Shown here piece by piece: positions 47,110 to 53,187 of a stretch of DNA of 54,313 nucleotides. Position 1 is the first letter of the stretch. Every line of letters starts with the position of its first letter. Location: NCBI GenBank assembly GCA_014730165.1, contig WJIS01000079.1, positions 1 to 54,313 of the forward strand, given 5' to 3'. Origin of the DNA: Promethearchaeota archaeon. Lineage in GTDB: Archaea > Asgardarchaeota > Lokiarchaeia > Sigyniarchaeales > SOKP01. The position numbers and the translations under genes were made by a program. The notes beneath the pieces are model-generated. The model searched no databases, had not been told where the DNA came from, and was given only the letters and a program-made list of their open reading frames with translations.

Positions 47110-47571
47110 TTAGAATATTGAACGAAATCGATCTTCGGTCTTCAATCGGAGATCTCCAAGAACATCATCTATTCTGGTTGTAAATCTCTTTTCAAAATAT
47201 TTCTTCTTTTTAGAAAAAATATCATTACGCGGAAATCTATTTAAAAAATGAGCATTAATTTCTTTTAGATGTTTTTTAACCACATCTGTTTCTGTTTCCT
47301 TTTCGATTATAGCATAATATAGTAATGGTTGAGTATTATCCTTTTCTTCTGAACCAGGTAAAGCTATTAAGTCCGAATAACAAACTAATTTAAATGATGC
47401 TAATGAAACAACATTAATATCATCACCAAAGACCTCAGAGCTGAAACTTTCTAATGCAGAAAGAAAACCAGCACGTAAATTAGGATCAAGAACATTATCA
47501 GAAGCAGAATAATACTGTCTCTCAAAAATATTTCTATTACCTAAATTAATACCTAATTCGAGTATAGCCAT
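47110..47571 (-). CDS. Putative longin/roadblock-like protein
   Basis: beta-alpha-beta-beta-alpha pattern: MAILELGINLGNRNIFERQYYS / DPNLRAGFLSALESFSSEVFG / INVVSLASFKLVCYSDL / QPLLYYAIIEKETETDVVKKHLKEINAHFLNRF. Confidence 0.45.
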   Translation of the reverse strand: MAILELGINLGNRNIFERQYYSASDNVLDPNLRAGFLSALESFSSEVFGDDINVVSLASFKLVCYSDLIALPGSEEKDNTQPLLYYAIIEKETETDVVKKHLKEINAHFLNRFPRNDIFSKKKKYFEKRFTTRIDDVLGDLRLKTEDRFRSIF

Positions 47572-47762: not shown

Positions 47763-48620
47763 TTACGAGTTGAATTGATTTTTAAAACAAATTAATGTAT
47801 TCTGCATTAGTGATGCAACTGTCATCGGACCAATCCCCCCCGGATTAGGAGTAATTGCATATGCTTTCTCAAATACCTCGTCATAATTTACATCACCACA
47901 AAGCTTTCCATTAACTCTATTTGTACCAACATCGATTAATACTACGCCTTCTTTAATTTTTTCTTTAGTGATAAAATTTGGATGTCCAACAGCAACAATC
48001 AGTATATCCGATTGCTTCATAAAATTTTCGATATTCTTAGTTTTTGAATGGCATATTGTGATTGTAGCATTTCTATTTAAAAACATAAAAATCAAAGGCT
48101 TCCCAACGAGATTTGATCGATTGATTATTGTCACATTTTTTGATTCGATCTCTATATCATAATGTTCCAATAATGTGATAATTCCTTTTGGAGTACATGG
48201 CGCTAAGGTTTCCTTATAATCAAACAATTTTCCTCTATTTATATAAGAAAATCCATCAACATCCTTCGAGGGATTAATCTTTTGGATAATCTTATTTGTC
48301 TCCTTTCTCAAGGGTTCTGGGAGGGGTAATTGTAGCAAAATAGCATGAACATTATCATCTTTATTTAATTCTTCGATTTTATGGATAAGCTTCTTAGAAG
48401 AAATATTTTCATCTAAGGAAATCATCAAAGAATTTATCCCCACCTCCTGGCACGTTCTATGCTTAATCTTAATATACACTTCAGAGGCAGGATTAGTTCC
48501 AACTAAAATTGTTGCTAAACTTGGTGTATGTCCAGTTTCTTGTTTTATTTTTTTTATCTCTTGAGATAATTCAGAATTTAATTTGGAGGCTAATTTTCTT
48601 CCATCCAGAATTATTGTCAT
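47763..48620 (-). CDS. folD: Bifunctional methylenetetrahydrofolate dehydrogenase/cyclohydrolase
   Basis: PSLATILVGTNPASEVYIKIKHRTCQEVGI, AILLQLPLPEPL, DVDGFSYINRGKL, PCTPKGIITLLEHYDI, NRSNLVGKPL, TPNPGGIGPMTVASLMQNT. Confidence 0.97.
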   Translation of the reverse strand: MTIILDGRKLASKLNSELSQEIKKIKQETGHTPSLATILVGTNPASEVYIKIKHRTCQEVGINSLMISLDENISSKKLIHKIEELNKDDNVHAILLQLPLPEPLRKETNKIIQKINPSKDVDGFSYINRGKLFDYKETLAPCTPKGIITLLEHYDIEIESKNVTIINRSNLVGKPLIFMFLNRNATITICHSKTKNIENFMKQSDILIVAVGHPNFITKEKIKEGVVLIDVGTNRVNGKLCGDVNYDEVFEKAYAITPNPGGIGPMTVASLMQNTLICFKNQFNS

Positions 48621-48645: not shown

Positions 48646-49728
48646 TTATATTCTACGTTTTTGCCAGTAATATGCAATAAAAGCAATTACTACCCCTATA
48701 ACTCCAAGCACAATTAGAAGTATTATCCAGTTGAATTCTACAACACCAATATTTTCATTCAGAGAAGAAATTGCATCTAACTCAAAAAGTGTATTGAATG
48801 CATAATATGAAGAGATAACGCTGGATTGCTTTTGAGCAAGATTTTGAGAACTTGAGAATCCACCATCTAAAGTGGTTTGTTGATCTAATATCCATTCTAT
48901 GGTTTTTTGACGATTAGGAATTTCAAGAGAATTCAATAGTGTTAATGCTTTAATTGCTTGAAATGTGCTACTGATGAGACTGACATCTGATTCTGAAGAT
49001 GAAACATAACCACCATCGAAATTATGGAAGCTCTTAAGATATTCTACTGTTTTAGTTGAATTAGAAAAGTCTCCCAATGTACCAAGCTTAAATATTAGGA
49101 GCGTCGCAAAGTATGTATTTGATAACTTTGATGATAAAGAAGAATTCCCTCCATACCCGCCATCCTCAGCATTATAACATGAATTTATCCAGTTCTTATG
49201 GATTGAAGTACTATTAATATTTGCATTGATTAAATCGTAAGATTCCAAAGCGAAATACGTAGAAGTTAAACTAGGAGCTTTAGTTCCATTTGTGGGAGAA
49301 AAACCTCCACCAGACTTTTCGGTTTGATTGAGATAAATCTCCACTTTTAATAATAAAGATGATGAAAGTGATGCTCCTAATTGATCAATTGAGTTTAGGA
49401 GATGATAAACATCATAAATAGGAACTACTTCATCTGTAAGAATTGATTCTAGGGTTGACTTTAAATTATTTCCTAATTCTGATTGACTAAACCCTTGTGG
49501 AAATACATTATAATAATATAAAATATCTAAAGCATAATTAGTAGATTCATATGAGACGACATCGTTCACGATTCCATTAGAAAATCCATCATCAGAAACA
49601 TATGTAGAATTTATAAAATCTACTAAATATACACTTCTTAATTTAGCAACGGATAACGGAGTAAGTAGTAATAATACGAGACTTACTACTGAAATAATTG
49701 AAATTTTTTGAAACTTATTCTTCAACAA
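48646..49728 (-). CDS. Secreted/membrane-anchored protein with prenyltransferase/squalene-cyclase-type alpha-toroid repeats
   Basis: N-terminal signal-like segment, repeats (GGGFSPTNGTKAPSLTSTYFALESYDLI; DGGYGGNSSLSSKLSNTYFATLLIFKL; DGGYVSSSESDVSLISSTFQAIKALTLL; DGGFSSSQ), C-terminal TM IILLIVLGVIGVVIAFIAYYWQKRRI. Confidence 0.8.
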   Translation of the reverse strand: MLKNKFQKISIISVVSLVLLLLTPLSVAKLRSVYLVDFINSTYVSDDGFSNGIVNDVVSYESTNYALDILYYYNVFPQGFSQSELGNNLKSTLESILTDEVVPIYDVYHLLNSIDQLGASLSSSLLLKVEIYLNQTEKSGGGFSPTNGTKAPSLTSTYFALESYDLINANINSTSIHKNWINSCYNAEDGGYGGNSSLSSKLSNTYFATLLIFKLGTLGDFSNSTKTVEYLKSFHNFDGGYVSSSESDVSLISSTFQAIKALTLLNSLEIPNRQKTIEWILDQQTTLDGGFSSSQNLAQKQSSVISSYYAFNTLFELDAISSLNENIGVVEFNWIILLIVLGVIGVVIAFIAYYWQKRRI

Positions 49729-49825
49729 GAAAACCTCTAATTCATTTTACAAATTTAATTTTGTAAAATCTATCTTTAAATTAAAAATTAACTAGATCAG
49801 AGCAAGAAATTAGAAAATTTGAAAA

Positions 49826-51364
49826 TTAGGAGGAAAATACTTGGGAAATATCACGATATAGAACATCTTTGTTTGCTTGAAATTCTTCTTGAGTAATAAA
49901 TAGATTTCTAAATGAGGGTAGACTTCCTAATATCGCAGCACCGTTAAAAATAGCATGAAGTAGATTATTAGGTACAAAAAATTTGATAATTTTTCTAGAT
50001 TTATCAGTGGAATCTTCAAACTCACTCGCAACACTAGGGATGGTGGGCGTGCTTTTTGGGGGAGGTGCACTCTCAAGCTTTTTATCTTCCAAATTAAAAC
50101 CACAATAAGGGCAAAAGGCAGAGTCTTTATCTTTAATTTCCTTATTACATAAGGGACATTTAATTACTCCTTTAGCAGTATCAGGATTTTGCGAGTCAAT
50201 GTCTAAAGATATCTGAGGTAAATTAAGATCAGCATCACATTGAGGACATGTTGTTTTCCCATCAGATAAATCAACTAATGTTCCACATTTCGGACAGTTA
50301 TCTTTATCCTTTTTAGCTGCGGTCATAACAGGTTTCAATTGATTTGCTTCATTTTTATTAAACTCATCTTCATGGGGCTTAGGAATTTCTCCTAATTGAG
50401 GTAATAATCGATCAAGTTCAAATTTAAGTCGTTCTTCGAAACCACTATGCATTAAGTTTCCTCCAGAAAGCACTATATGGGAGAGTAGATCTCCCCAATA
50501 ATCCCGATCTATACTTTGTAGACAAGAAATAACCGCATTTGCTACATTTTGAGAATTTGAACCGATCATAGTAGGTTCAAATAAAACTTCAGGAGCTTCA
50601 TAGAGGATGTGATGAGGTATTTCCACGGTTGAACCATCCGGCATTGGATATGAGATGTTATCTCGTTGAATTTCTGGAGGATTATCTGGATCTAATACAA
50701 AATAGCAATTCTTTTCCTTCAATTCCTTGATTATTTCATCTGACGCTGATGATGATAGACTTATTCCCTCTCTCATCATTAATGATTTCAGATTATGACT
50801 TATATCCATACCAGCTAAATTTAATCTTTGAACAGATTTATATATTATTTGGCCATTAATAATTGGGACAATCCATGTTGTTCCATCTCCACTCTCTATG
50901 ATCAATCCAGTTGTGAGCCCAACAGAAAAACAAGAGAGGATTGGAGAAGGGACCATTATAATACTCTTAACTTGATGTGTTTCATACAAAACTCGTGCTA
51001 CAAATTCTTTAATCTCGTTAGAGACAAAAGGAGCTTCTACATATAATATGGGATAATTCTCAAAACTTTCTATTCTTAGGAGATTATAGAAAATATGATT
51101 TAAGATTTGGTAAAACTCATCCCAATCCATTATATTTCCACGTTGGATAGGATGTGATACTTTTAATACTCCTCTCATACGCATAGCATCTTCTCCTACA
51201 TACACATTTCGTGCATCCACATCTACCATAACAGAAGTGTATTTTTCAGTTCCAGTAATACATGGAAAAATATATCTTGGTTCAGATTCTCCAGCAAAAC
51301 CAACTTTCACATACGCTGAACCGAGATCGATTATAATTGGTGTTCCAGAGGGAGGTAATGACAT
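49826..51364 (-). CDS. Actin-related protein with inserted double zinc ribbon
   Basis: PIIIDLGSAYVKVGFAGESEPRYIFPCITG, GVLKVSHPIQRGNIMDWDEFYQILNHIF, GLIIESGDGTTWIVPI, HIVLSGGNLMHSGFEERLKFEL, FNGAAILGSLPSFRNLFITQEEF; insert with CPKC..CPQC and CPLC..CPYC. Confidence 0.93.
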   Translation of the reverse strand: MSLPPSGTPIIIDLGSAYVKVGFAGESEPRYIFPCITGTEKYTSVMVDVDARNVYVGEDAMRMRGVLKVSHPIQRGNIMDWDEFYQILNHIFYNLLRIESFENYPILYVEAPFVSNEIKEFVARVLYETHQVKSIIMVPSPILSCFSVGLTTGLIIESGDGTTWIVPIINGQIIYKSVQRLNLAGMDISHNLKSLMMREGISLSSSASDEIIKELKEKNCYFVLDPDNPPEIQRDNISYPMPDGSTVEIPHHILYEAPEVLFEPTMIGSNSQNVANAVISCLQSIDRDYWGDLLSHIVLSGGNLMHSGFEERLKFELDRLLPQLGEIPKPHEDEFNKNEANQLKPVMTAAKKDKDNCPKCGTLVDLSDGKTTCPQCDADLNLPQISLDIDSQNPDTAKGVIKCPLCNKEIKDKDSAFCPYCGFNLEDKKLESAPPPKSTPTIPSVASEFEDSTDKSRKIIKFFVPNNLLHAIFNGAAILGSLPSFRNLFITQEEFQANKDVLYRDISQVFSS

Positions 51365-52779: not shown

Positions 52780-53187
52780 TTAATTGGATTTATTCAATAT
52801 ATTTTTTATTCGGATTCGCATTTCTTCCACCTCTGAAGAAGCTGTTTGATAATATTGAAGTAAATATTCCCCCCAATCATTTAATTTTATCCATCCCCCT
52901 CCACCACTTCCTCCTTTGCTCGTTATCACTGCGGCCTTCCCCGTACGCTTCTCGATACGTTTTAAAATATTCCAAGCATATTTATAAGAATAACCACATT
53001 GTTTTGCGGCTTTAGTTAACGATCCTTTTTCACTTTCATTATTTCTAATATATTCCAGAAGTTTTGCCCACCCCTGTCCTAAAATATTTTTCCCGTCAAA
53101 CTCGAGCCAAATCTTTATTCCAAAATCAACATTCGGTTTTAATTCATCTAATCTAACAGAAGCAACTTTAGTAGATTCTTCCTCCAT
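52780..53187 (-). CDS. ModE N-terminal-like winged-helix regulator
   Basis: GQGWAKLLEYIRNNESEKGSLTKAAKQCGYSYKYAWNILKRIEKRTGKAAVITSKGGSGGGGWIKLNDWGEYLLQYY. Confidence 0.88.
   Translation of the reverse strand: MEEESTKVASVRLDELKPNVDFGIKIWLEFDGKNILGQGWAKLLEYIRNNESEKGSLTKAAKQCGYSYKYAWNILKRIEKRTGKAAVITSKGGSGGGGWIKLNDWGEYLLQYYQTASSEVEEMRIRIKNILNKSN

What the first reader, a model, noticed from the sequence alone, without database searches (positions are those of the whole stretch)
49826..51364. Actin-related protein carrying a two-zinc-ribbon insertion
Seen directly: residues 1 to about 324 read as an actin fold (nucleotide-binding loops DLGSAYVKVGFAGE, ESGDGTTWIVPI, LSGGNLMHSGFEERLKFELDRLLP), and residues about 458-512 resume as the canonical actin C-terminus (KIIKFFVPNN..IFNGAAILGSLPSFRNLFITQEEF). 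Between them lie about 130 residues (roughly nt 49994-50392) with two CxxC..CxxC zinc ribbons (CPKC..CPQC; CPLC..CPYC) and low-complexity linkers. By comparison with actin, the insert falls between the ..LAPS and KIKIIAPP segments of subdomain 3. Inference: the zinc module could dock a partner (nucleic acid, ubiquitin-like protein or membrane complex), or block polymerization and make this a regulatory Arp. I am not aware of such an architecture in characterized actins.
Basis: partly seen in the sequence, partly recalled or inferred. Interest (0 to 1): 0.85.

Follow-up and report, generated by a model that had tools for sequence, protein, structure and literature searches.

The report
Asgard actin relative with zinc arm
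A whole order of Lokiarchaea, microbes related to the ancestors of complex cells, carries an actin-like protein with a flexible zinc-binding arm inserted where actin subunits touch each other in a filament, and its gene almost always sits next to one for a probable cell-surface protein, which suggests an actin regulator or anchor that I could not find described.

Summary
The ORF at 49826-51364 (-) is a 512-aa actin-family protein whose fold is interrupted at residues ~325-457 by two CxxC..CxxC zinc ribbons. It is not an artefact: it is an orthologous family found in 72 of 82 genomes of the same order (Lokiarchaeia) and nowhere else in ~230 Asgard genomes searched. ZnR1 is invariant; ZnR2 is absent in one family and in Ca. 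Lokiarchaeum ossiferum. The L. ossiferum copy is the published actin homologue UYP44711.1 (its RT-qPCR primers match exactly), so the gene is known as an ARP, but I found no description of the insert.

AlphaFold2 gives an intact actin fold with a flexible insert. The insert replaces the 322-325 loop that touches the next subunit in F-actin. Hydrolysis residues Q137 and H161 are lost, and the barbed face has diverged while the pointed face is kept. The gene just downstream (median gap 146 nt) encodes a membrane-anchored, probably extracellular alpha/alpha-toroid protein; the pair persists where the surrounding gene order is lost.

Best reading: a non-homopolymerising regulatory Arp whose zinc arm docks partners, probably at the membrane, possibly capping Lokiactin barbed ends. 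The mechanism is inferred. New variant of a known kind.

The parts
49826..51364 (-). Zinc-ribbon actin-related protein (ZnR-ARP), 512 aa
50393..51364 (-). Actin core, residues 1-324 (subdomains 1, 2, 4 and most of 3; P1 and P2 nucleotide loops)
   Evidence: Pfam Actin 8-323; model pLDDT mostly above 89 over residues 1-330, with dips at residues 41-70 and near 201-245; invariant nucleotide-site residues
49994..50392 (-). Insert, residues 325-457, replacing the actin 323-325 loop of subdomain 3
   Evidence: linkers pLDDT <50 at residues 336-350, 384-399, 428-456
50234..50296 (-). Zinc ribbon 1 (C357-xx-C360 ... C373-xx-C376), conserved in all orthologues aligned
50099..50158 (-). Zinc ribbon 2 (C403-xx-C406 ... 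C418-xx-C421), absent in family f4 and in Ca. L. ossiferum
49829..49993 (-). Actin C-terminal segment resumed, residues 458-512
   Evidence: residues 461-500 pLDDT 92-96
48646..49728 (-). Conserved downstream neighbour: signal/anchor helix, alpha/alpha toroid (PF00432), C-terminal TM helix, short basic tail; 360 aa
   Evidence: both genes in 70 of 72 genomes with the ARP, counted
52780..53187 (-). ModE-like HTH protein, upstream neighbour conserved in f1 and f3 (38-94 bp from the ARP in f3); association with the ARP uncertain
47763..48620 (-). FolD-like gene (named from its sequence, no family search run), downstream neighbour in f1-f3; probably conserved synteny only

Best explanation
This is a lineage-specific, non-homopolymerising, regulatory actin-related protein of one lokiarchaeal order. 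SHOWN by sequence or structure model: a complete actin fold with a conserved nucleotide site; a flexible arm with one or two zinc ribbons replacing a subdomain-3 loop; loss of the residues that drive ATP hydrolysis; a diverged barbed face beside a retained pointed face; descent as one clade; and near-constant adjacency to a gene for a membrane-anchored alpha/alpha-toroid protein. INFERRED: the protein binds ATP but hydrolyses it poorly, cannot accept a further subunit on its barbed face, and works as a docking subunit. Its pointed face (D-loop and 243-245 loop) would engage Lokiactin, for example the barbed end of a filament, while the zinc arm recruits a partner at the cytoplasmic side of the membrane, in a pathway that also needs the cell-surface toroid protein. 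Step-by-step estimates: architecture 0.97; regulatory and not homopolymerising 0.7; functional link with the surface toroid protein 0.5; barbed-end cap or anchor specifically 0.2-0.25.
For: Architecture and conservation. Fold intact with a flexible insert: pLDDT 82.5, core mostly >90, linkers <50; actins matched with TM 0.89-0.93 by target length. Nucleotide site: D11, G13, K18, G156, G158, G182, E214, G301, G302 identical in 57/57 orthologues. Hydrolysis/sensor residues changed: Q137 to T/S in 56/57, H161 kept in 3/57, H73 to R in 57/57, D154 to E in 55/57, while the same genome's two Lokiactins keep all four. The insert replaces residues 323-325, inside the loop that touches 243-245 of the neighbour in F-actin (PMC7247010). 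Identity to own Lokiactin: pointed-face positions 0.44, barbed-face 0.25, against 0.34 and 0.60 for Lokiactin versus muscle actin. Single clade, support 100/100. Adjacent toroid gene: both genes in 70 of 72 genomes with the ARP, both absent in 9 (counted), including one 100% complete genome (G099) and one single-contig genome (G095). The L. ossiferum copy was assayed by published RT-qPCR (PMC9834061), whose primers match exactly.
Against: No experiment on this protein's function. The face asymmetry is modest (permutation p 0.018, circular shift p 0.029), and the interface position lists come largely from my own knowledge of F-actin, checked only in part against PMC7247010. The toroid protein's predicted cytosolic part is only a few basic residues, so a direct grip by the zinc arm is not obvious. 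Gaps between the two genes (median 146 nt) and a conserved AT-rich motif between them suggest the toroid gene may have its own promoter. Two genomes (G160, G161) keep the ARP without the toroid. A long flexible insert need not block polymerisation if it swings clear of the interface.
Confidence: 0.45

Rival explanations
1. It is a polymerising paralogue of Lokiactin: the flexible linkers let the zinc arm hang off the filament side, decorating a filament (homopolymer or copolymer) with docking sites.
For: Linkers predicted disordered, so the arm could swing clear; D-loop and 243-245 loop well conserved; C-terminal actin segment resumes at high confidence.
Against: Insert sits in the longitudinal 322-325/243-245 contact (PMC7247010); W-loop residues (Y166 to I, E167 to N, Y169 to Q), 287-288 and the C-terminus have diverged; Q137 and H161 lost.
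Confidence: 0.2
2. It is a subunit of a non-cytoskeletal machine, like the nuclear Arps of chromatin remodellers, with zinc ribbons binding nucleic acid or other proteins; the toroid neighbour is only conserved synteny.
For: Arp8 is a precedent: ATP-bound, insertions at Arp hot spots, monomeric (PMC3510490); weak PDB hits of the insert include transcription-factor zinc ribbons among other zinc proteins (none convincing); FolD and HTH neighbours are also conserved in part of the order.
Against: No chromatin or DNA-repair gene is a conserved neighbour; the ARP-toroid pair outlasts the other neighbours, persisting in family f4; generic double zinc ribbons are not specific to nucleic acid.
Confidence: 0.2
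3. The zinc ribbons only stabilise or redox-tune the protein and have no partner; the protein is an ordinary Arp with a decorated loop.
For: Linkers are poorly conserved outside the cysteines; ZnR2 is dispensable in f4 and L. ossiferum.
Against: ZnR1 is kept in every orthologue aligned from an entire order; the arm is separated from the core by long disordered linkers, a poor design for stabilisation but a good one for docking.
Confidence: 0.12
4. Assembly or annotation artefact (fusion of two genes).
For: None beyond the unusual architecture; one MAG (G132) has the gene split between two frames, which affects only that genome.
Against: The same architecture in 57 orthologues, including single-contig genomes.
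Confidence: 0.01

Closest known systems
Asgard ARPs, in particular UYP44711.1 of Ca. Lokiarchaeum ossiferum (PMC9834061)
   Same: Same orthologous family: the published RT-qPCR primers match the L. ossiferum orthologue (L068) exactly; placed there among ARPs and measured at lower transcript level than Lokiactin.
   Different: That paper's main text contains no mention of zinc; the L. ossiferum copy has one zinc ribbon, the window copy two.
Lokiactin (L002, L003 in the same genome)
   Same: Actin fold, nucleotide site, pointed-face loops.
   Different: 36% and 34% identical; Lokiactin has no insert and keeps Q137, H161, H73 and D154.
Eukaryotic Arp8 (INO80)
   Same: ATP-site actin fold with insertions at Arp hot spots, one small one at the barbed-end side of subdomain 3; Q137, H161 and H73 replaced; monomeric (PMC3510490).
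   Different: Arp8's main insertions are elsewhere (D-loop, hydrophobic plug) and no zinc ribbon came up in the passages I read; Arp8 works in chromatin remodelling.
Arp2 and Arp3 of the Arp2/3 complex
   Same: Insertions relative to actin serve complex-specific docking and regulation (PMC4947185).
   Different: No zinc ribbon in them to my knowledge; Arp2/3 leaves the barbed face free for growth, whereas here the barbed face carries the insert.
Double zinc ribbon domains (PF12773 DZR, PF13248, PF13240)
   Same: The insert matches these Pfam models.
   Different: I know of no characterised actin-family protein with them as an internal insert.
Protein prenyltransferase beta subunits (for the neighbour)
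   Same: Alpha/alpha toroid; Foldseek best hits are RabGGTase and FTase beta subunits, TM up to 0.74 by target length.
   Different: The neighbour has a signal/anchor helix and a C-terminal TM helix and no fully conserved set of zinc ligands; enzyme activity is not indicated.

Membership tests
Actin family (PF00022) | Full actin-domain match including C-terminal segment | tested here: met
   Pfam 8-323 at 235.8 bits; C-terminal segment aligned by phmmer, MAFFT and in the model
Actin family (PF00022) | Nucleotide-binding residues | tested here: met
   D11, G13, K18, G156, G158, G182, E214, G301, G302 identical in 57/57
Conventional (filament-activated) actin | Hydrolysis residues Q137 and H161 | tested here: not met
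   Q137 to T/S in 56/57; H161 kept in 3/57
Conventional (filament-activated) actin | Forms filaments | not testable with these tools
   Only indirect: insert in the 322-325 contact and diverged barbed face
Lokiactin (canonical Asgard actin) | Groups with Lokiactins in the tree | tested here: not met
   Separate clade, 100/100 support
Double zinc ribbon (DZR) | Two CxxC..CxxC knuckles above the family cut-off | tested here: met
   DZR 28.9 vs 27.3 bits; 22 of 23 members match at E <= 0.001
Double zinc ribbon (DZR) | Binds zinc | not testable with these tools
   No metal assay
A particular eukaryotic Arp subfamily (Arp1-Arp11) | Orthology in a tree with eukaryotic Arps | not tested
   No eukaryotic Arp sequences were included in my tree; PMC9834061 places UYP44711.1 among ARPs of eukaryotes and Asgards
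ZnR-ARP orthologous family defined here | ZnR1 at the 322-326 position plus adjacent toroid gene | tested here: met

The most novel reading that the evidence does not exclude
The ZnR-ARP is an archaeal barbed-end terminator and anchor: it docks on Lokiactin filament ends through its intact pointed face, blocks further growth with the zinc arm, and ties the end to the membrane in a system with an extracellular toroid protein, so that filament ends are linked to the cell surface in Asgard archaea.
Probability: 0.18. Interest if true: 0.88.

Novelty: new variant of a known kind. Interest (0 to 1): 0.66.

Why it matters
How Asgard archaea regulate and anchor their actin cytoskeleton is an open question for eukaryogenesis; profilins and gelsolins are known, but I found no function described for Asgard Arps. 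An Arp built with a zinc-ribbon arm exactly in the filament contact, in an entire order and in a cultured organism (Ca. L. ossiferum), is a concrete target: transcripts of the copy there have already been assayed. The linked surface protein gives a testable membrane connection. It also suggests that adding docking modules at Arp insertion hot spots happened within archaea as well as in eukaryotes.

Tried and rejected
Viral contigs: no relative. Assembly artefact: rejected on 57 orthologues. Occurrence outside the order: a profile of insert plus C-terminus over 229 Asgard genomes gave only plain actin C-termini or unrelated zinc-ribbon proteins outside f1-f4. Specific zinc-ribbon relatives in the PDB: only weak, mixed hits. 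NCBIfam: no family above cut-off. Toroid-like proteins in sister families (G082-G085) are not next to an ARP; in two of them RWD-domain genes, and in one a ThiF/E1-like gene, lie nearby. N-glycosylation sequons as a test of extracellular location: mean 6.0 vs 4.6 in shuffles for the family, but 6 vs 5.7 in the window protein, so inconclusive. Direct docking of the zinc arm to the toroid tail: considered, weak, because the predicted cytosolic tail is only a few residues. Literature searches found no description of an Asgard actin with a zinc-ribbon insert, but the library holds only open-licence papers. Sigma-70/terminator scan: no excess over shuffles, and not suited to archaea.

Full report
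WHAT IS THERE. The window belongs to a lokiarchaeal genome (G000, 4.65 Mb, 98% complete; nearest named relatives are Candidatus Lokiarchaeota MAGs). The ORF at 49826-51364 (-) encodes 512 aa. Residues 8-323 match Pfam Actin at 235.8 bits, and residues 357-422 match the double zinc ribbon family. The actin C-terminus resumes at about residue 460. Against actin numbering, the insert lies between P322/S323 and K326, i.e. in the loop after a helix of subdomain 3 and before the next strand (this site is called alphaK/beta15 in the Arp literature, from my own knowledge).

IS IT REAL. In 232 genomes of the phylum, full-length relatives with the insert (57-65% identity) occur across most of the same family, and more distant ones (35-51%) in one genus of that family and in three other families of the same order. 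I aligned 57 orthologues. All have zinc ribbon 1; 52 also have zinc ribbon 2; the five with only ZnR1 are four f4 sequences and G091. From I count 72 of 82 genomes of the order with the gene (three of these are cut at contig ends or split between frames). A profile of insert plus C-terminus found the combination nowhere else in 229 Asgard genomes. In a tree with other Asgard actins and muscle actin, the family is one clade (100/100), f4 is sister to the rest, and it is separate from Lokiactins and from the other ARPs of the same genomes. So ZnR1 was probably present in the common ancestor of the order; ZnR2 was either gained before f1-f3 diverged or lost in f4; L. ossiferum lost it separately (inference).

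LINK TO PUBLISHED WORK. G091 is a single 6.04-Mb contig. The RT-qPCR primers published for UYP44711.1 of Ca. Lokiarchaeum ossiferum (PMC9834061) match its orthologue exactly, and those for the other three actin homologues do not match this locus. So this family is one of the four published actin homologues, assigned there to ARPs and transcribed at a lower level than Lokiactin. The main text does not mention zinc. Other literature searches found no description of the architecture, with the caveat that only open-licence papers are held.

STRUCTURE. AlphaFold2 on 60 sequences: mean pLDDT 82.5, pTM 0.73; actin core mostly above 90, resumed C-terminus 92-96, ribbons about 72-80, linkers 336-350, 384-399 and 428-456 below 50. 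Foldseek against the PDB returns actins with TM 0.89-0.93 by target length. The insert is compatible with the fold and tethered by flexible linkers.

FUNCTIONAL RESIDUES. The nucleotide site is kept (nine residues identical in 57/57). The hydrolysis and sensor residues are not: Q137 to T/S in 56/57, H161 kept in 3/57 (usually W), H73 to R in 57/57, D154 to E in 55/57. The two Lokiactins of the same genome keep all four. Arp8 shows the same kind of change (Q137 to E, H161 to S, H73 to R) and has only low basal ATPase activity (PMC3510490). In F-actin, residues 322-325 of one subunit contact 243-245 of the next (PMC7247010). The family keeps P243-D244-G245 in 57/57 and D-loop M44 in 56/57, while Y166, E167, Y169, 287-288 and the C-terminal residues on the barbed face have changed. 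Identity to own Lokiactin is 0.44 at pointed-face positions and 0.25 at barbed-face positions (permutation p 0.018; circular shift p 0.029), although between Lokiactin and muscle actin the barbed face is the better conserved one (0.60 vs 0.34). The interface lists are partly from my own knowledge, so this is suggestive, not strong.

NEIGHBOURHOOD. Directly downstream on the same strand lies a 360-aa protein (48646-49728) with a signal/anchor helix, an alpha/alpha toroid of the prenyltransferase type, one C-terminal TM helix and a short basic tail. A blast match to it follows the ARP gene in 57 of 62 distinct orthologue loci, all on the same strand, with a median gap of 146 nt; L069 has a more diverged copy as well, and some of the rest are cut at a contig end. 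By genome: both genes in 70, ARP alone in 2 (G160, G161, where a transporter-like gene follows), toroid fragment alone at a contig edge in 1 (G100), neither in 9 including G099 (100% complete) and G095 (one contig). Adjacent genes are lost together in incomplete assemblies, so only the near-complete cases count as evidence. In the f4 loci examined, ARP and toroid are the adjacent pair that remains of the local gene order. FolD and a ModE-like HTH gene are neighbours in f1 and much of f3 but were not found in f4. The basic residues at both ends put the toroid outside the cell by the positive-inside rule (inference; sequon counts were inconclusive). A conserved AT-rich motif precedes the toroid gene in f1, so co-transcription is not shown.

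MOST LIKELY MECHANISM. A regulatory Arp that binds but hardly hydrolyses ATP, does not form homofilaments, engages Lokiactin through its pointed face, and recruits partners with the zinc arm, in a pathway shared with the surface toroid protein. Capping or anchoring of barbed ends at the membrane is the sharpest version and is speculative. The tail of the toroid protein is too short to be an obvious direct ligand; a third partner is likely if the link is real.

KNOWN OR NEW. It works like eukaryotic Arps that use insertions at hot spots for docking (Arp8, Arp2/3 subunits). It is a member of the actin family and not a Lokiactin; orthology to a particular eukaryotic Arp was not tested. The zinc-ribbon cargo and the surface-protein pairing are, as far as I could find, undescribed. 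I rate it a new variant of a known kind.

Noticed in passing
window 48646-49728 and orthologous loci: Membrane-anchored alpha/alpha-toroid protein conserved beside the ARP across the order; no fully conserved prenyltransferase zinc ligands, although C184 is kept in 50 of 55.
   Followed up: yes
window 49729-49825 and the same intergenic region in f1 loci: Conserved AT-rich motif (about AGTTAATTTTTAATTTnAAGnTAAATTTAAAAAATTAA) just upstream of the toroid gene; in the window it includes the inverted repeat ATTTTACAAAATT/AAATTTGTAAAAT. Possibly a promoter or operator.
   Followed up: partly
L077:594-1232 and 2237-2932: Two ESCRT-III (Snf7) genes 3-6 kb upstream of the ARP in one f4 genome.
   Followed up: partly
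L095 and L096: In sister families of the class, toroid-like membrane proteins lie near RWD-domain genes and, in L096, a ThiF/E1-like gene, without any ARP.
   Followed up: partly
G000: L001-L006: The genome encodes six actin-family proteins: two Lokiactins (82% identical to each other), the ZnR-ARP, one further ARP and two very divergent ones.
   Followed up: partly
L082 (G132:C12): In one MAG the ZnR-ARP gene is split between two frames near residue 410, a probable sequencing or assembly frameshift.
   Followed up: no
L078 and L079 (G161, G160): In two genomes of the window's own genus the toroid gene is missing and a sugar-transporter-like gene follows the ARP.
   Followed up: partly
L112 and L119 (G231): Another Asgard genome has actin-family ORFs of 571 and 753 aa, longer than plain actin; their extra parts were not examined.
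   Followed up: no
window 47110-47571: Unknown 153-aa protein, 66-77% conserved throughout family f1 and without a Pfam or NCBIfam match, next to the TGS-domain GTPase gene.
   Followed up: no
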